64,000 bases of DNA from Actinospica robiniae DSM 44927 (GTDB lineage Bacteria; Actinomycetota; Actinomycetes; Streptomycetales; Catenulisporaceae): contig NZ_KI632511.1 in the NCBI RefSeq assembly GCF_000504285.1, forward strand, positions 8,352,154 through 8,416,153, given 5' to 3'. A program made the position numbers and the translations under genes. This document shows positions 2,622 through 58,151 of this stretch, piece after piece. The notes below the pieces were generated by a model, which was not told the origin of the DNA, did not search any database, and saw only the letters and a program-made list of their open reading frames with translations. Numbering within the stretch: the first letter of the stretch is position 1; every line of letters begins with the position of its first letter.

Positions 2622-3526
2622 CGCTCCCGCAGCCGGTCGTGCAGCGAGCGCGCGACGTGGCCCATGAGGGCTTCGGCGGCGGGCTGAGCGGCGGCCGGGA
2701 CGGCCGATTCGGTGAGGGCGACGACGGCGTAGGCCTCACCGTCCTCGTGTTCGACGACGCCGGCGTCGTGGCGCAGGTTGAGCAGGGTGCCGGACTTCGA
2801 GGCCCAGGTGGTCGAGTCGGAGATGAAGTCGGGACCGAGGCGGCGCTGGACCAGGGCGTTGCGGAGCAGGGCCCGAGTACGCGCGGCGACCTCCGGATGG
2901 ATGGCGGAGGGCGTCCACAGCGCGGCGAGCAGGTCCGCGATGGCGCGGGCGGTGCCGGTGTTCGCGCGGGTCAGGTCGAGTTGAGCGACGGGGTGGCCGC
3001 CGCCAGGGGTGCGCGCCCCGACCGCGATGGCGTGCGCGACCTGCACGCCGGCCTGGTTCAGCCCATCGATCGCGACGGCGTAGAGGTCGCGCATCGGGTG
3101 CCGCACCGCGATGCCGCTGATGCCCGCGTCCGCCAGCACGCGGTCCACTTCAGCCGGCGGCACGAGGTCGAACAGCGCGTCCGCGGCGGCGTTGTCGCTG
3201 ATCGCGATCGCCAGGTAGAGCAGGTCGTCGACGGCGATGCGGACGGGGTGGGCGAACTTGGCGATGCCGGGCGAGGACTGTTCGTCACCGCCGCCGGGGA
3301 TGATCTCCAGCGCCGTCGCGCCGTCGAGCCTCCCGACGCGGATGGCTTCGAGCACGGCGATGGCGAGCGGCACCTTCACCACCGACGCGATCGGGTACGC
3401 GCGGTCCGGTTCGATGCCGATCTCTTCGCCGGTGGCGAGATTCCGGACAAGAAAGGACCCTGATAGTCCGGCCGCCGCGAGCCGGTCCCGCAGTCCATCG
3501 ATCAGATCTCTGTCATGCATCGGCAT
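2618..3526 (-). CDS. Signal-less penicillin-interacting serine hydrolase (BlaB-like)
   Basis: 302 residues of class A beta-lactamase fold with the active-site motifs S48-V-V-K51, SDN and KSGT. There is no signal peptide, lipobox or transmembrane segment: the protein begins MPMHDRDLIDGL. A secreted beta-lactamase is therefore unlikely. It overlaps the end of the upstream lysR gene by 14 bases and is co-directional, with the secreted beta-lactamase divergent. This matches blaA-blaB-blaL of Streptomyces cacaoi, where BlaB is a beta-lactamase-like protein needed for induction. By inference this is the inducer-sensing partner of the LysR regulator. The ATG at 3526 has a GGAGGC site; a TTG at 3544 is less likely. 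Confidence 0.75.
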   Translation of the reverse strand: MPMHDRDLIDGLRDRLAAAGLSGSFLVRNLATGEEIGIEPDRAYPIASVVKVPLAIAVLEAIRVGRLDGATALEIIPGGGDEQSSPGIAKFAHPVRIAVDDLLYLAIAISDNAAADALFDLVPPAEVDRVLADAGISGIAVRHPMRDLYAVAIDGLNQAGVQVAHAIAVGARTPGGGHPVAQLDLTRANTGTARAIADLLAALWTPSAIHPEVAARTRALLRNALVQRRLGPDFISDSTTWASKSGTLLNLRHDAGVVEHEDGEAYAVVALTESAVPAAAQPAAEALMGHVARSLHDRLRER

Positions 3527-49176: not shown

Positions 49177-52100
49177 TCAGTCGATCTCGACCAACGCCAG
49201 GTTCCACCGGTCGCCGGTGGGCGCGGTGTCGTTGACCGTGACTGCTGTGCCCGCCGATGGAATCGGCGCGGTGACGTACTGGACCCAGTACGTGTCGCCC
49301 TTGCCATCAGTGGACTGGGTCAGCAGCGTCTGGTTCGGCCCGACGATGCGCGGGCTCGAGGCCGTCCAGTCGTTGCCCACCGCGAAGACCCACCCGTCGG
49401 CGCCCGAGGTGGTCAGGCTCGCCGTGGACGCGCCCTTCGCCGCCGAGGCGCCCGCGGTCTGGCCGGTGCCGGTCGCGCTGCCGAACGCGACGACCGTCAG
49501 GGACAGGCCGTAGCCGGTCGTGGTCAGGGTCGCGGCGATCGCAGGGTTCGACAACGTTGAGCTCGCACGGGCCGTCCAGATCTCCGCGGTCCCGTACTGG
49601 CCGTTCGTCCGCTTGGCGAGGGTCCAGGTCAGGCCGCCGCCGGAGACCTTCGCCTTCTGCGACGCGCCGGACGGCCCGTCCCCGGAGACGAAGGCGACGA
49701 TCAGGTCGCCGGAACCGGCGGTCGTCAGATGCGCGGTGGCCGTCGTCGTTCCGGACGCGGTCGCCTGCTGATCGATCGTCGGCCCGCTCGACGCGGCGAC
49801 GGTGATCGTCGTGGACGGGCCGACCGCGGCGTTGCCCCCGCCGTTGTCCGCCTTGACGGTGAACGTCGCGGCACCCGGCGCGGTCGGTGTGCCGGAGAGC
49901 AGCCCGGTGGCCGCGTTGAGCGCGAGACCAGCCGGGAGCGAACCGGACGCGACCGAGAAGGTCGGCGCCGGAACCCCCGTGGCCGCGTAGGTGTAGCTGT
50001 ACGGCTGGCCGACCGTGGCGGTCGCCGGCGGAGTGTCCGCCGTGAACGCCGGGGCGGTCTGTTGGAAGGTGAACTCGTCCGCGGACGTCGTCGGGCTGAC
50101 CCCGGCCGGCGTCATGACCTGGACATCGACAGTGCCCTGGGTCTCTTCCGGCGTGGTCGCCCGGAGCTGCGTGTCGGACACGACGGTGAACGAGGCCGCG
50201 GAGACGGCGCCGAACGAGACCGCGCTCGCGCCGGTGAACCCGCTGCCGTTGATCGTGACCGTGGTGCCGCCGCCGGCCGGTCCGCTGCCGGTGCTCAGCC
50301 CGGAGATCGCGGGCGCGGAGCCGTAGTAGTACTGGTCGGCGCTCGACGTCGCGCTCACGGCCGGGCCGTTGCCGACCGTGACGTCGACCGAGCCGGAACC
50401 GGGCGGGGCGATGGCGGTCAGTTGCTCCGGCGAGAGGAAGGTCACCGAGGTTGCCGCCGCCGAGCCGAAGGACACGGAGCTTTCCGGGGTGAATCCGGTG
50501 CCGATGATCGAGACCGCGGTCCCGCCCGCCGCCGGGCCGCTGGCCGCGCCCAGCTGCGTCACGGTCGGGGTCGGCGCCGGCGCTTCACCGCTGCAGGCGA
50601 GGGTGATGGTCAGGCCGAGCTGCGGCGGCGGCACCGGGTACGGGCCGATCGTGGCCGAGGTCTTACCTGTGTCCTGCGCGTCGGTGCAACCCGGTGCGTC
50701 GGCCTGGACCTCGTACCAGCCCGAGAAGACGTCCCAGTGGAACGTGCCGTCGGCCCCGGTGGTCTCCGGGTCCACGGCCGGCCGGATGCCCAGCGCGCTC
50801 GGGTCCATCGCGGTGAACGGCCCGGAGGCGGTGTCGGCGCGCAGGATGGTGACTGTGGCGCCGTGGACCGGGTTGCCATGGGTGTCCAGCACCGTGCCGG
50901 ACGGGTCGATGTAGGCGTTGTCCGGCTGCGGGGCGTCGGGACAGAAGATGTCGAAGGCGATCGTCGCCGCGGCCGTGACGGCCTGCTTCGCCATCCAGTT
51001 GGCCGCGAAGCTGGTGGCCACGTCGAGCGCGATCTGAGCGGCCGGGGTGGCCAGTGCGGCCTCCATCGCCGGGATCAGCGGCGCGAGTACCAGCGAGTCC
51101 GCCATGAGCGCGGGGATCGCGATGTCGGCACCGGCGGCCAGCGCGGCGCCGAAGGCGCGGATCGGACCTTGCAGCGCGGCGAGCGCAGCGTTGATGGTGG
51201 CCTGCTTCCCGGTCGCGCAACTCGGGTGCAGGAACGCCTGCGCCGCGGCGGAGATCGCCTGCATGTAGCTGACGACGTTGGTCCCGGGGTAGTTGAACGA
51301 GGGGACCTGCTCGAGATACCTGTCGATGAAGTCCATGACCTGGGTGAACGTGATGGCGGTGTCCATCGGCTGCACCGCCTGGCTGTGCCCGCTCGCGCCG
51401 TCGGTGAGGGTCTTCGCCGCGGCCGCCTCCGGCCGTGCGCTCGCCGCCTTGCCGTGCCCGGTGTCCGCGGCGCCACCCGTATAAGAGAACTGGTCCGCCG
51501 CCACCGTGGGCGTGGTCGCACCGTAATAAGTCTGAATGCTGATATCCACGGTGCCGGAACCCGGCGGGCTCACCGCCTCGATCTCGTTGTCCGACACCGT
51601 GGTGAACGGCACGCCGACGTCGCCGAACTCGACCGTGGACGCCGCGGACAACCCGGTTCCGGCAATCAACACCGCGGTGCCACCGGCGTTCGGCCCGGTC
51701 GACGGGCCGACCGAGGAGATGTCCGAGTACGAGTACTGACCCGCGTTGATGGCGTTGCCGCCGGCCGTGACCTCGATCTGCGCGGTTCCGGTTCCGGCCG
51801 GGACGGTGGCCTGGAGGTCACCGTCGTCGAGCACGGTGAACGCGGTGGCCGGCGTGGCGCCGAAGTCGACCGCGGTGGCGCCGGTGAAGCCGCTACCCGT
51901 GATCAGGACGCTGCTACCGACCGCGCCCGAGGCGGGCTGCACTGTGCCGCGCGGCAGGCAGGTCGTGGAGCTGTCGATCTCCGCCGGGCCGTGCACCGGG
52001 GCCAGGGCCGGGATGGTGCCGGCATAGTCGCCGGAGCCGTAAGACGTCTCCGTCAGCGGAGTGAAGCTGGCCTGGTAGTCACCGGTGTCGTTGTTCAGAC

Positions 52101-53991
52101 CGACGACGCTCACCACGCCGAGCCCGCCCTCGCATCCGCTGACCGACGTGTCGGAGGGGTTGCCCCAGTACAGCGTCGGGGTGTCGGTTCCGCCGACGGT
52201 CAGGCCGCCGGAGAGCGAGGCGACACCGGACAGCGCGAGGGTCTCGCCCTGGATTCCCGCCGCCGGCACCGTGATGGCGTTCGTCGAGACCGACCCCTCG
52301 CCGCTCTCAGCGGGCGGATAAGCCGTGAGCACGACCGAGCTGGCGACCACCGCCTTCACGCTGAAGCCGCCGTCCGCGCCGGAGGTCGCCTGCTGGCACT
52401 CGGTCGCGTCGGCCGAACAGGCTTGGACGAGGCTGCCGGGAGCCGGAGTCGCCCCGTCCGGCCCCACGATGCGGCCGGAGACGGTCGTCCCCGGCTTGAT
52501 CGTGACCGTGAACGGCCCCGCGGTCGAGCTGCCGCTGGGGTTGGTCGCCGTGACGCTGTAGGTGAAACTGCTGATGCCGTCCGGGACCGTGCCGGTCACC
52601 CTGCCGGACCCGGCGTCGATGCTCAGCCAGCTCGGCGCGTCGGCGGACAGCGTGAAAGTCGGTGCCGGGACGCCGTTGTCGGTGAAGCCGTACGTGTACT
52701 GCCAGCCCGAGGCGGTGACCGTCGGCGGGTTGGCGATCACGAAGTTCGGCACGTCCTGGGTGACCAGCACGGCGCCGCCCGCGGAGATCGAGGCGGCCTT
52801 GGCGCCGTCGGCCAGCTGAATGGCCACCGGAGAGCTCGAGTCCTGATCCGTCCCGTTGCCGAGCGAGAAGCCGTAGCCGTTGTAACCCCAGTCGTAGACG
52901 ACGCCGTCCTGCCCGATCACGTAGCCGTTCGCTCCGCCGCCGGCGTCGACCGAGGCGGCGAGGACCCCGCCGGGCAGCGTGATCGCCTTCGGGCTCAGCT
53001 GCACCTCGGAGGTCGGGCCGCCGTCGCCGAGCTGCCCGTACTCGTCCGAGCCCCAGGTGTAGACGCGCCCGTCCACGCCGAGCGCCATCGCGAACTCGGT
53101 CCCGGCCGCGGCGGCTGCCGCGTGCACGCCGTCCGGCAGGCTGATCTGCGTCGGCGACAGGTGCGGGTCGGTAGTGCCGTCGCCCAGCTGGCCGTCGTAG
53201 TTGTAGGTGCCCCAGCTGAACAGCTTCCCGTCGGTGCCGACGGCGAGCCCGAGCCCGTCGTCGAGCGAGACCTGCGCGACCGGATCGCCGCCCGGCATGG
53301 TCGCCTGCACCGGGCTGTGGTGCTCGGTGGTGGTGCCGTCGCCGAGCTCGGCGTTCTCGTTCATGCCCCAGGTGAACAGCTTCCCGTCGGTGCCGACGGC
53401 GGCCACGCTGTAGCCGGACGCGTCCACCGACGCGGCCTTGTCGCCGCCGGGCAGCGTCACCTGCACGGGCACGCCGCTGTTCGTCTGCGTGCCGTTGCCC
53501 AGCTCGCCGAACTCGCTGTCGCCCCAGGTCCACACCCGGCCGGCCGAGTCCACTGCGACGGCGCTCTCCGAACCGGCCGCGATCCCGACCGGCACGGCGC
53601 CGTCCGGCAGCGAGATCGGCTCGGGCTGCTCGACCGAATCCGCCTCGATGTAGCCGTTGCCCAGCTCGCCGAACTGGTTGTCACCCCAGCTGTAGATCTG
53701 CTGATCGGAGCCGATCGCGTAGCTCGCCGACCCACCGGCCGCGACCTGGACCGCGCTGACACCGGGAGCCAGCGTGATCTGCTCCGGCGTCTGCGCGTTG
53801 TTCGTGGTGCCGTCGCCGAGTTCGCCGTCGTAGTTGGCGCCCCACACCGTCAGCGGGGTCGTCGCCGTGTCCGCGGCGGCCGTGGTCGCGGCCGCCGCCG
53901 TCAGTCCGCAGGCGCCGAGCGCCAGCGCGGCCAGCACGGCCGGAATACGGGCTCTGCGATGTTTCGGGGCATAGCGAAGGAACGCACTCAT
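49177..53991 (-). CDS. Giant secreted RCC1-repeat / IPT-TIG / Ig-like protein
   Basis: 1604 residues. A signal peptide (basic APKHRRARIPA, core, cleavage near AAADTATT) is followed by seven RCC1-type repeats (about 40-410, WG..N..GELG/QLGDGT motifs), a He_PIG-like domain, a carboxypeptidase-regulatory-like domain, two IPT/TIG domains, a helical segment (about 880-1000), a second carboxypeptidase-regulatory domain, two further IPT/TIG domains, another He_PIG domain and a C-terminal beta-sandwich. No enzyme motif or sortase signal is seen. An adhesive or binding role at the surface is likely. The start at 53991 has a GGGGAG site. Confidence 0.88.
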   Translation of the reverse strand: MSAFLRYAPKHRRARIPAVLAALALGACGLTAAAATTAAADTATTPLTVWGANYDGELGDGTTNNAQTPEQITLAPGVSAVQVAAGGSASYAIGSDQQIYSWGDNQFGELGNGYIEADSVEQPEPISLPDGAVPVGIAAGSESAVAVDSAGRVWTWGDSEFGELGNGTQTNSGVPVQVTLPGGDKAASVDASGYSVAAVGTDGKLFTWGMNENAELGDGTTTEHHSPVQATMPGGDPVAQVSLDDGLGLAVGTDGKLFSWGTYNYDGQLGDGTTDPHLSPTQISLPDGVHAAAAAAGTEFAMALGVDGRVYTWGSDEYGQLGDGGPTSEVQLSPKAITLPGGVLAASVDAGGGANGYVIGQDGVVYDWGYNGYGFSLGNGTDQDSSSPVAIQLADGAKAASISAGGAVLVTQDVPNFVIANPPTVTASGWQYTYGFTDNGVPAPTFTLSADAPSWLSIDAGSGRVTGTVPDGISSFTYSVTATNPSGSSTAGPFTVTIKPGTTVSGRIVGPDGATPAPGSLVQACSADATECQQATSGADGGFSVKAVVASSVVLTAYPPAESGEGSVSTNAITVPAAGIQGETLALSGVASLSGGLTVGGTDTPTLYWGNPSDTSVSGCEGGLGVVSVVGLNNDTGDYQASFTPLTETSYGSGDYAGTIPALAPVHGPAEIDSSTTCLPRGTVQPASGAVGSSVLITGSGFTGATAVDFGATPATAFTVLDDGDLQATVPAGTGTAQIEVTAGGNAINAGQYSYSDISSVGPSTGPNAGGTAVLIAGTGLSAASTVEFGDVGVPFTTVSDNEIEAVSPPGSGTVDISIQTYYGATTPTVAADQFSYTGGAADTGHGKAASARPEAAAAKTLTDGASGHSQAVQPMDTAITFTQVMDFIDRYLEQVPSFNYPGTNVVSYMQAISAAAQAFLHPSCATGKQATINAALAALQGPIRAFGAALAAGADIAIPALMADSLVLAPLIPAMEAALATPAAQIALDVATSFAANWMAKQAVTAAATIAFDIFCPDAPQPDNAYIDPSGTVLDTHGNPVHGATVTILRADTASGPFTAMDPSALGIRPAVDPETTGADGTFHWDVFSGWYEVQADAPGCTDAQDTGKTSATIGPYPVPPPQLGLTITLACSGEAPAPTPTVTQLGAASGPAAGGTAVSIIGTGFTPESSVSFGSAAATSVTFLSPEQLTAIAPPGSGSVDVTVGNGPAVSATSSADQYYYGSAPAISGLSTGSGPAGGGTTVTINGSGFTGASAVSFGAVSAASFTVVSDTQLRATTPEETQGTVDVQVMTPAGVSPTTSADEFTFQQTAPAFTADTPPATATVGQPYSYTYAATGVPAPTFSVASGSLPAGLALNAATGLLSGTPTAPGAATFTVKADNGGGNAAVGPSTTITVAASSGPTIDQQATASGTTTATAHLTTAGSGDLIVAFVSGDGPSGASQKAKVSGGGLTWTLAKRTNGQYGTAEIWTARASSTLSNPAIAATLTTTGYGLSLTVVAFGSATGTGQTAGASAAKGASTASLTTSGADGWVFAVGNDWTASSPRIVGPNQTLLTQSTDGKGDTYWVQYVTAPIPSAGTAVTVNDTAPTGDRWNLALVEID

Positions 53992-54191
53992 ACCAGTCTC
54001 CCCACCAGTAAGCGCACTCATTGGGCCCGGCGGGACACCGACAGCGGGTCACCGGGCCGCCACCGAAAGAGACTGTAACAGTCGTCGTCTACTCCGGATA
54101 GACACCGCTCTTCGGCTGCGTCCGATGTTGTCGGTGGGGCCGCCTAGACTCGCGATCAACTCGATCCGAGCGGGGAGGCCACAGGCTGCTG

Positions 54192-56946: not shown

Positions 56947-56963
56947 GCCCGAAGGCTAACACA

Positions 56964-56985
56964 TCTTGAACTGATCGGTTCAAGA
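56964..56985. promoter_or_regulatory. TetR operator in the hydrolase/TetR divergon
   Basis: TCTTGAAC, TGATCG, GTTCAAGA: a perfect 8-bp inverted repeat 18 bases upstream of the hydrolase start and 53 before the TetR start. It is the expected site for the adjacent repressor. Confidence 0.75.
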
Positions 56986-57037
56986 TAATAGGGTGCGCGA
57001 ACGCGGCAGGAACGAGCGCCCGGCGAGGAGGTGCCAC

Positions 57038-57643
57038 GTGGCAGGCAAGAAGCAGTTCGACATGGAGACGGCGCTCGACGCCGCGATGATCCAGTTCTGG
57101 CGCGTCGGCTATGCCGAGACGTCGCTGGACGATCTGTCCCGGGCGACCGGCCTGAACCGCAGCTCCATCTACTCCTCGCTCGGCGACAAGGACACGCTCT
57201 TCGTCCGCTGCCTGGACCGGTACGCCGCGCGCTTCGGCGCCAGGTACGACGCCGCTCTCGCCCGCGCGGGATCGGAGCCCGTCGCCGCCGTCCGCGCGTT
57301 CTTCGAGGTCACCCTCGAGCGCATCGCCGACCCCGAGCTCCCGGACGGATGCCTGATGGCCCAGTCGGCCATGGCGATTGCGACACTGAGCCCGGGCGCC
57401 GCGGCGCGGGCGAAGGAGGCGCTGGGCGCCCAGCGCCTGCGCCTGCGCTCGGCGCTCAAAGCCGGCCGGTTGAACGACCAGGACGCCGAGGACTTCGCGC
57501 TGCACATGGCGGCCGTGAACCTATCGCTCGCCATCCTGAGCGGAAGCGGATCGAGCCCGGCACAGCTGCGGGCCGTCGCGGGCGTGAGCATCGACGCGTT
57601 CGCGCAGGCGCTGCGTGGCGGCGGTCGGTCCGGCCGCGCGTGA
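57038..57643 (+). CDS. TetR-family regulator
   Basis: 201 residues from the GTG at 57038, which has a GAGGAGGTG site. The helix-turn-helix is near the start (ALDAAMIQFWRVGYAETSLD, then DLSRATGLNRSSIYSSLGDK); the C-terminal domain with the PDGCLMAQSAMA segment is the TetR_C type found in AcnR/YxaF-like repressors. It is predicted to repress the divergent hydrolase and itself. Confidence 0.9.
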   Translation: MAGKKQFDMETALDAAMIQFWRVGYAETSLDDLSRATGLNRSSIYSSLGDKDTLFVRCLDRYAARFGARYDAALARAGSEPVAAVRAFFEVTLERIADPELPDGCLMAQSAMAIATLSPGAAARAKEALGAQRLRLRSALKAGRLNDQDAEDFALHMAAVNLSLAILSGSGSSPAQLRAVAGVSIDAFAQALRGGGRSGRA

Positions 57644-57732
57644 CTCCCTCGGGGTTCCCGGTTCGGCGAGGTCGAGAACCGAATTATCAGCCATATTCAT
57701 CAGACTGCGGATATTGAATAAGAAAACTGATA

Positions 57733-57761
57733 TTGACAGTGAACAGAGTCGTGCATATCAT
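57733..57761 (+). promoter_or_regulatory. Near-consensus sigma-70 promoter of the cysteine-rich peptide gene
   Basis: TTGACA (57733-57738), 17 bp, TATCAT (57756-57761), in an unusually AT-rich segment (57665-57790). Transcription would begin near 57768, giving a leader of about 100 bases. Confidence 0.75.
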
Positions 57762-57776
57762 AACTCTTGCACCCGA

Positions 57777-57788
57777 GTAAGCGCTTAC
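57777..57788 (+). promoter_or_regulatory. cre-like palindromic operator
   Basis: GTAAGCGCTTAC, a perfect 12-bp palindrome with a central CG, about +10 relative to the inferred start. It is the type of site bound by LacI/GalR-family repressors. Confidence 0.6.
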
Positions 57789-57868
57789 AGCACACGCGTC
57801 CTAGCACACCCGAAGATCGCGCCGAGCCGGCGGGATCTTCGCGTTCCATCGGCAAGGAGGTGAATACC

Positions 57869-58081
57869 ATGGCGAATCCGTTCAAGGTCATCGGGGACTC
57901 CCTGCTTGGCCGCCTCGTTCCGACGTGGCAGGCCAAGGCGGACTCCTGCATCGGCATCAGGGGCGTCAACGAGGGCTACTGCTGGATCGAGTACACCCAG
58001 TGTGAGACCCCCAGCCGCCACATCTACTGCGAGTACACCACGTGCGGCGGACAGCGGGTCACGTACAACGGCATCTGCTGA
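57869..58081 (+). CDS. 70-residue six-cysteine peptide with leader-like N-terminus
   Basis: The first 26 residues (MANPFKVIGDSLLGRLVPTW, then QAKAD) form an amphipathic leader-like segment without a classical signal peptide. The rest has six cysteines, C27, C38, C45, C54, C59 and C70, the last being the C-terminal residue, with many Tyr, Thr and Gly. The gene has an ideal AAGGAGGTGA ribosome-binding site, a strong promoter, an operator and its own terminator, so high regulated expression is likely. It could be a disulfide-rich secreted peptide, a RiPP precursor or a metal-binding peptide. No modifying enzyme is adjacent, and no family is recognised with certainty. Confidence 0.8.
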   Translation: MANPFKVIGDSLLGRLVPTWQAKADSCIGIRGVNEGYCWIEYTQCETPSRHIYCEYTTCGGQRVTYNGIC

Positions 58082-58110
58082 CGTCAGTCGCTGACCTCTG
58101 ATTCACCCCT

Positions 58111-58151
58111 GTCGTCCGTCCGCCACCCATGCGGACGGACGACGGTCGTTT
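58111..58151 (+). terminator. Terminator of the cysteine-rich peptide gene
   Basis: A perfect 13-bp stem (58111-58123 with 58131-58143), loop CACCCAT, followed by GGTCGTTTTC. Confidence 0.85.

What the first reader, a model, noticed from the sequence alone, without database searches (positions are those of the whole stretch)
57665..58151. Strongly expressed, operator-controlled six-cysteine peptide
A 70-residue peptide with a leader-like N-terminus and six cysteines has near-consensus -35/-10 boxes, a cre-like palindrome at +10, an ideal ribosome-binding site and its own terminator. The upstream DNA is far more AT-rich than the rest of the window, which hints at acquisition. Such an equipped orphan peptide could be a bacteriocin, RiPP precursor, signalling peptide or aerial-structure component.
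Basis: partly seen in the sequence, partly recalled or inferred. Interest (0 to 1): 0.65.

Follow-up and report, generated by a model that had tools for sequence, protein, structure and literature searches.

The report
Exported six-cysteine peptide, stray family copy
The window holds a stand-alone gene for a small cysteine-rich peptide; its relatives in this bacterium and in many Streptomyces sit in gene clusters that look built to export such peptides, join their cysteines in pairs and cut off a shared leader, so it is probably one of a varied set of secreted, disulfide-locked peptides whose targets are unknown.

Summary
In detail: a 70-residue, six-cysteine ORF (57869-58081) with the only near-consensus sigma-70 promoter in the 3 kb scanned, a palindrome at about +10, a perfect Shine-Dalgarno and a terminator stem. 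It is a real gene: two 75-77% identical promoter-to-terminator copies stand in tandem 3.9 Mb away, and the exact palindrome GTAAGCGCTTAC occurs three times in the genome, once at each copy. The genome encodes nine precursors with a common leader (GDxxLxRLVPxxxAxA) and varied Cys-rich cores. Eight of nine lie within 6 kb of a MauE gene, in clusters with a MauD-like thioredoxin, an ABC exporter and an S26 peptidase; only the window copy stands alone. The full module recurs at 12 of 12 first-round and 18 of 20 second-round loci of other genomes, against 0 of 20 control regions. Cysteine numbers are even in 24 of 24 and 22 of 22 precursors. Best reading: an exported disulfide-bonded peptide, leader cut by an S26 peptidase, matured in trans. 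decRiPPter (2020) predicted MauE/Cys-rich candidate families; my searches showed no experiment. Target unknown.

The parts
57680..57776 (+). AT-rich promoter region; similar in both paralogues (homology by blastn from 57726)
   Evidence: only stretch of the window under 50% GC in 137-base windows; 75-77% identity from 57726 on
57733..57761 (+). sigma-70-type promoter TTGACA-17-TATCAT
   Evidence: 11 of 12, only site in the 3 kb scanned; conserved with a 17 or 18 bp spacer in the paralogues
57777..57788 (.). perfect 12-bp palindrome GTAAGCGCTTAC, operator candidate at about +10 (LacI/GalR-type shape, label from memory)
   Evidence: 3 exact copies in 9.92 Mb, all at the three paralogous promoters; about 0.2 expected
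57854..57863 (+). Shine-Dalgarno AAGGAGGTGA
   Evidence: AAGGAGGTGAATACC before ATG identical in the paralogues
57869..58081 (+). six-cysteine precursor peptide gene, 70 aa plus stop
   Evidence: E 7.9e-31 and 8.4e-30 to the two paralogues; profile hit 4.2e-16
57869..57940 (+). leader, residues 1-24, MANPFKVIGDSLLGRLVPTWQAKA, ending in AxA (predicted S26 cleavage after A24)
   Evidence: alignment of 22 leaders: both A of AxA invariant, D10 and P18 in at least 90%; dN 0 among paralogues; cleavage inferred
57941..58078 (+). core, residues 25-70, six Cys, predicted four beta strands
   Evidence: dN 0.37-0.45 among paralogues; AlphaFold2 pLDDT 83-87 in the blocks from residue 31 on (best of five models)
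58109..58145 (+). intrinsic terminator stem-loop
   Evidence: 15 pairs; stem conserved in the paralogues

Best explanation
The gene encodes the precursor of a small exported peptide held by three disulfide bonds. Shown: it belongs to a family with a common leader of about 24 residues (GDxxLxRLVPxxxAxA) and varied cores with even cysteine numbers, encoded beside MauE, a MauD-like thioredoxin, an ABC exporter and an S26 peptidase; the window copy is a stray cassette (promoter to terminator) related to the pair at 4.49 Mb. Inferred: the leader docks the reduced peptide to the ABC exporter; the membrane protein MauE and the CxxC protein MauD pair the cysteines outside the membrane; the S26 peptidase cuts after AxA; the window peptide is served in trans by the cluster at 4.49 Mb, whose two precursors have an identical leader; a regulator binding GTAAGCGCTTAC controls the three copies together. 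Most likely use: a secreted weapon or effector against other microbes, with the three copies varying the active face (inferred, about 50%).
For: Paralogues and identical leader. Nine precursors in the genome, eight within 6 kb of a MauE. Full module at six own loci, at 12 of 12 first-round loci, at 18 of 20 second-round loci with at least three parts at 20 of 20, controls 0 of 20 (ABC matches under 400 residues dropped on both sides); also at 9 of 11 named contigs with all four parts (S26 not seen in L171, which ends at its contig end, nor in L174) and at 2 of 2 Streptomyces plasmid loci. MauE CxCFG in 18 of 18 boxes, MauD CxxC in 18 of 19 by script (the 19th box was out of frame; CKAC is readable in the DNA). 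Even cysteine count 24 of 24 and 22 of 22 against 85 of 133 small control ORFs; no Cys before the AxA in any of 24. Leader without a hydrophobic core. No C39 domain matched in the L008 exporter. Leader dN 0, core dN 0.37-0.45.
Against: No experiment. The window copy has no maturation gene nearby (nearest MauE 452 kb), so maturation in trans is untested. Core dN exceeds dS but not significantly (Fisher p 0.48-0.66), so diversifying selection is not shown. No regulator found. No immunity gene recurs widely (an FtsX-like permease at 5 of 38 loci), which weakens an antibacterial reading. MauE genes without module exist in this genome (7539757, 2954984). Precursors counted for cysteine parity are partly related to each other. 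AxA ends the leader, but cleavage there is a prediction. L127 lacked a full-length ABC match and L138 a MauE.
Confidence: 0.72

Rival explanations
1. The peptide is a RiPP precursor whose Ser/Thr/Cys are enzymatically modified (lanthionine, azole, thioether or glycan), with disulfides secondary.
For: Leader-core layout; decRiPPter listed MauE clusters as candidate RiPP families and suggested a role in modification.
Against: Among 38 precursor loci, the seven families found at five or more loci are ABC, MauE, S26, MauD, AfsR-like, an FtsX-like permease and a protein that reads by eye as helix-turn-helix plus membrane segment; no lanthionine synthetase, YcaO, radical SAM or glycosyltransferase recurs at that level. 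The gene calls were crude, and rarer enzymes were not looked for one by one. Even Cys counts fit disulfides.
Confidence: 0.12
2. The window copy is a decaying or silent duplicate with no function of its own.
For: No maturation genes nearby; absent beside the hydrolase-TetR pair in 4 relatives.
Against: Promoter, palindrome, Shine-Dalgarno, leader (dN 0 at dS 0.26-0.34 to the paralogues), all six Cys and the terminator stem are kept while synonymous sites have changed.
Confidence: 0.12
3. The cysteines bind a metal or cofactor and the Mau genes serve that; the peptide is a structural or redox part, as in methylamine dehydrogenase maturation.
For: MauE and MauD are described as part of methylamine dehydrogenase maturation (in PMC7794033, passages read).
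Against: Core sequences and Cys spacing vary widely between loci, unlike a cofactor site; an exporter and a leader peptidase stand beside the precursors.
Confidence: 0.05
4. The peptide is a signal between cells rather than a weapon.
For: Small, secreted by inference, its own operator-like palindrome; AfsR-like regulators at 11 of 38 loci and helix-turn-helix membrane-type proteins at 5 of 38, the latter by eye.
Against: Nine precursors, no two with the same core, in one genome and strong divergence among strains; no sensor kinase family recurs at five or more of 38 loci.
Confidence: 0.15

Closest known systems
decRiPPter MauE/MauD candidate RiPP families in Streptomyces (PMC7794033, 2020; passages read)
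   Same: Cys-rich precursors in clusters with mauE, in one family also mauD, in Streptomyces; the authors suggest a role in precursor modification.
   Different: Their precursors have at least 8 Cys, ours mostly 6; the passages read do not describe a common leader, the S26 peptidase, even Cys counts, or stray copies outside clusters. Their precursor table is a supplement that could not be read, so identity is likely but untested.
Methylamine dehydrogenase maturation genes mauE/mauD (Paracoccus; named in PMC7794033)
   Same: MauE Pfam family over the cut-off and a MauD-like CxxC thioredoxin protein.
   Different: The partner here is a peptide with exporter and leader peptidase. Of the two MauD-like proteins scanned one matched TIGR02661 MauD, far under its cut-off (18.8 against 188.6 bits), the other did not match it. 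Methylamine dehydrogenase itself was not searched for.
Double-glycine bacteriocins with C39-ABC exporters; sublancin/glycocins with BdbB-type oxidases (recalled)
   Same: Dedicated ABC exporter plus disulfide oxidation for a small secreted peptide.
   Different: Leader ends in AxA, not GG; no C39 domain matched; a separate S26 peptidase.
Conotoxin precursors (recalled, analogy only)
   Same: Constant leader, changeable core on a kept Cys pattern among close copies.
   Different: Bacterial; leader without Sec-type hydrophobic core; no homology.

Membership tests
MauE-associated Cys-rich candidate RiPP family (decRiPPter) | Small Cys-rich precursor encoded beside mauE | tested here: inconclusive
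   Met for the family: 8 of 9 own precursors within 6 kb of a MauE. Not met for the window copy itself: nearest MauE 452 kb
MauE-associated Cys-rich candidate RiPP family (decRiPPter) | At least 8 cysteines in the precursor | tested here: not met
   Six in the window peptide; 4-10 in the precursors counted
MauE-associated Cys-rich candidate RiPP family (decRiPPter) | Sequence relation to the published precursors (S2 Table) | not testable with these tools
   Supplement look-ups are capped at 0
MauE-module peptide family defined here | Leader GDxxLxRLVPxxxAxA and an even number of Cys, only after it | tested here: met
MauE-module peptide family defined here | MauE, MauD-like, ABC and S26 genes in the same genome, beside a precursor with the same leader | tested here: met
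   L008 cluster at 4.49 Mb, 25 N-terminal residues identical
Double-glycine (class II) bacteriocin | GG-type leader end and C39 peptidase domain in the exporter | tested here: not met
   Leader ends AxA; no C39 match in the L008 exporter in Pfam at E up to 1; other exporters were not scanned with Pfam
Sec-secreted protein | Hydrophobic signal-peptide core | tested here: not met
   Highest 15-residue Kyte-Doolittle mean 0.75 in the window leader, 1.66 at most in 24 leaders; no signal-peptide predictor was run
Lanthipeptide or other enzyme-modified RiPP | Modification enzyme beside the precursor | tested here: not met
   No such family recurs at five or more of 38 loci (crude gene calls); the window neighbours scanned are TetR, alpha/beta hydrolase, GNAT and DUF4132. 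Rare enzymes are not excluded
Knottin/defensin folds | Known disulfide fold | tested here: inconclusive
   Foldseek best E 0.35, VIA-align best Z 4.4, rmsd 1.6 over 44 residues; phmmer lists plant-type Defensin-1 at E 0.38, not significant

The most novel reading that the evidence does not exclude
A bacterial, venom-like peptide system: one constant leader hands changeable disulfide-locked cores to a dedicated Mau-type oxidation, export and S26 cutting line, and promoter-to-terminator cassettes such as the window copy can lie far from the clusters and be matured in trans, so that a strain can widen its arsenal by copying a 420-bp cassette alone.
Probability: 0.4. Interest if true: 0.75.

Novelty: new variant of a known kind. 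Interest (0 to 1): 0.6.

Why it matters
It turns a lone small ORF into a member of a large uncharacterised peptide family: a leader match at E up to 1e-4 in 38 of 391 genomes of the order, own genome included, by my count of the table. Disulfide-locked peptides made with their own folding, export and leader-cutting genes would be a new source of stable bioactive peptides, would give Mau-type proteins a function outside methylamine use, and would offer a folding line that could be borrowed for production. The clusters, the leader rule and the stray cassette make direct deletion and mass-spectrometry tests possible.

Tried and rejected
Searches that led nowhere: viral contigs with the peptide (none), genome contigs with A1 (none), plasmids with the window peptide (1777 records but the rows shown have E 2-8, chance), Rfam (none), PDB by sequence (nothing significant), PDB by fold (no significant match; families not listed are not excluded). 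Phylum survey with A3: only the own genome of 396; with A4: own plus two partial hits in frames of 352 and 498 aa, judged chance and not followed. These surveys are samples and score few candidates per genome (15 or 21 in the listed rows), so absence is weak evidence; the family looks concentrated in the order.

Considered and rejected or left open: AT-richness as proof of acquisition (similar in the paralogues); larger protein containing the peptide (none seen); positive selection on the core (not significant); the LacI-family gene at L009:3315-4346 as the regulator: not supported, since of the 17 sites with at most one mismatch only the pair's own two, 8-9 kb away, are near it, but not excluded. 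FtsX-like permease as immunity: 5 of 38 loci, 0 of 20 controls, left open. Crude gene calling undercounts (MauE 30, S26 19, MauD 16 of 38, against the tblastn counts) and lumps all ABC ATPases, found at 2 of 20 controls. On re-checking, a frame that I had taken for antisense reads as a helix-turn-helix protein.

Selections: 12 of the 16 other genomes were fetched in round one; G136, G187, G212, G234 were left out. The 20 loci of round two (19 genomes) were picked at E up to 2.8e-5 among loci that were not rows of A4; hits of the same strength left out lie in G009, G010, G079 (C2:428886), G136, G187, G212 (two), G234 and G351 (second). At least L120, L121, L123, L125, L129, L132-L135 and L137 resemble A4 rows, so independence is partial. 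Weaker hits (E above 2.8e-5) were not checked and many lie in long frames. Controls were 20 arbitrary regions, 11 from genomes of round two and 9 of round one. In one search ABC matches under 400 residues were dropped in both groups. The 23 hits include four read from inside the leader, and one duplicate was dropped to give 22. The 24 are hand-collected; for some a filter had asked for at least three Cys, which does not touch parity. The control ORFs are mechanical frames with at least four Cys.

Full report
The feature. Window 57869-58081 (+) encodes MANPFKVIGDSLLGRLVPTWQAKA-DSCIGIRGVNEGYCWIEYTQCETPSRHIYCEYTTCGGQRVTYNGIC. 57629-57831 is the only place in the window where 137-base windows fall under 50% GC.

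It is a gene. The window is G000:C1:8352154-8416153 of a 9.92 Mb single-contig genome. Two paralogues stand in tandem at 4490144-4490922 on the other strand, 69% and 63% identical as proteins. DNA homology runs from window 57726 to 58143-58145, that is from the promoter to the end of the terminator stem, at 77% and 75%. The exact palindrome occurs three times in the genome, only at these three promoters; about 0.2 copies are expected from base composition. With one mismatch allowed there are 17 sites, against 6 for the reversed control pattern. Among the three copies the 25 N-terminal residues have no amino-acid change at dS 0.19-0.34, while the cores have dN 0.37-0.45 and dS 0.29-0.35; leader and core differ in this (Fisher p 0.0007-0.008), but dN above dS in the core is not significant (p 0.48-0.66).

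The family. A profile of 20 precursors finds eight in this genome at E up to 0.0028, the next hit being at 5.5; a ninth, at 3270781, was seen beside a MauE and scored 1.1e-6 with the leader profile, of which it was by then a row. Leaders share GDxxLxRLVPxxxAxA. No precursor scanned passes a Pfam, NCBIfam or PHROGs cut-off (best weak match E 0.0089). In the order 58 of 391 genomes match the leader at E up to 0.01, 38 at E up to 1e-4 by my count; the weaker of these were not checked. In a phylum sample of 396 only this genome does convincingly. Of 13 other genomes of the family, five have a leader hit at E up to 0.01; with the window peptide itself as query the 13 gave one match at 0.087.

The machinery. 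The genome has eight MauE genes over the Pfam cut-off. Eight of the nine precursors lie 0.4-6.0 kb from one of them; the window peptide is 452 kb away. Those clusters hold a MauE, a MauD-like CxxC protein, an ABC exporter and an S26 peptidase; two further MauE genes have no module. The same four genes stand at 12 of 12 first-round loci of other genomes. In a second round of 20 loci chosen by leader alone, all four are found at 18 and at least three at 20 (L127 lacks a full-length ABC match, L138 a MauE), against none at 20 control regions; at least ten second-round loci resemble rows of the profile. A public record shows the order hypothetical protein, MauE/DoxX, hypothetical, ABC, S26 on a plasmid of Streptomyces sp. 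NBC_00053. Relatives (74-97% identical) of one ten-cysteine member lie in S. netropsis, S. cinnamoneus, S. eurocidicus and eight other named contigs; 9 of the 11 hold all four genes. AfsR-like regulators occur at 11 of 38 loci by crude gene calls.

Chemistry. Cysteine counts are even in 24 of 24 first-set precursors (19 of them six) and in 22 of 22 second-set ones, against 85 of 133 small control ORFs with at least four Cys; none of 24 has a Cys before its AxA. This fits complete pairing, with the caution that members are partly related. MauE boxes keep CxCFG in 18 of 18. The L008 S26 peptidase keeps the serine (GDSMRPT) and lysine (IKR) motifs (catalytic roles recalled); the simple patterns missed the serine motif in 2 of 19 boxes and the lysine motif in 6 of 19, some of these boxes being partial. 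The leader has no hydrophobic core and the L008 exporter no C39 match, so cutting by the S26 peptidase after AxA is the natural inference. AlphaFold2 gives the core four strands at pLDDT 83-87 in the blocks from residue 31 on and the leader a low-confidence helix; the other four models had mean pLDDT 46-58 against 72, and no solved fold matches significantly.

The stray copy. No MauE, MauD or S26 match lies in the window. Upstream genes are an alpha/beta hydrolase and a TetR regulator, downstream a GNAT acetyltransferase. The hydrolase-TetR pair is conserved in four relatives without the cassette in the flank held, about 0.2-1.5 kb. So a promoter-to-terminator cassette was probably copied or moved here; since its leader is identical to those of the pair at 4.49 Mb, maturation in trans is likely but untested.

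Known or new. decRiPPter (PMC7794033; passages read) reported three Streptomyces candidate RiPP families with mauE, one also with mauD, with precursors of at least 8 Cys, and suggested modification of the precursors. Searches of the paper library (listings only; one search returned mostly unrelated words) showed no later work on them; the library lacks most subscription papers. What is added here is the common leader, the S26 and exporter constancy, the even cysteine rule, the spread, and a stray cassette with a private operator-like palindrome. I file it as a new variant of a known kind: a predicted but unproved class.

Noticed in passing
window 56963-56986: A 24-bp near-palindrome ATCTTGAACTGATCGGTTCAAGAT between the hydrolase and TetR genes is kept in four relatives (96-100% over 24-25 bp, matched in reverse orientation); probably the TetR operator.
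   Followed up: partly
L062:12203-12214 (G000:C1:7957203): A one-mismatch copy of the palindrome lies between the MauE and ABC exporter genes of another precursor cluster; may be chance.
   Followed up: partly
L063, L065 (G000:C1:7539757 and 2954984): Two MauE genes over the Pfam cut-off with no precursor or module found nearby.
   Followed up: no
L060:11265-14177, L061:12866-15634, L064:3115-6054, L075:6107-9031, L127:8462-11323: Large FtsX/MacB-like permeases (label by eye) near precursor clusters, 5 of 38 loci and 0 of 20 controls; possible self-protection or second export step.
   Followed up: partly
L124:4899-5966, L121:6646-7965, L072:8351-9835, L135:8193-9308: A recurring protein that reads by eye as helix-turn-helix plus membrane segment plus a lectin-like end, beside precursor clusters (5 of 38 loci).
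   Followed up: partly
L008:681-2066 and L003 about 2750-3210: The tandem-pair cluster is flanked by what read as an IS110-like transposase and a remnant of a mutator-type transposase (labels from memory).
   Followed up: no
L120:7449-7921, L137:7124-7573 (leader hits): Streptomyces loci with three and two tandem precursors of similar leader and differing core.
   Followed up: no
L167-L177: A ten-cysteine precursor is strongly conserved (74-97%) in eleven named contigs, mostly Streptomyces species, unlike the variable others.
   Followed up: partly
window 49177-54021 (-): A 1614-aa ORF that reads like RCC1-type repeats followed by IPT/TIG-like repeats, probably secreted (by eye).
   Followed up: no
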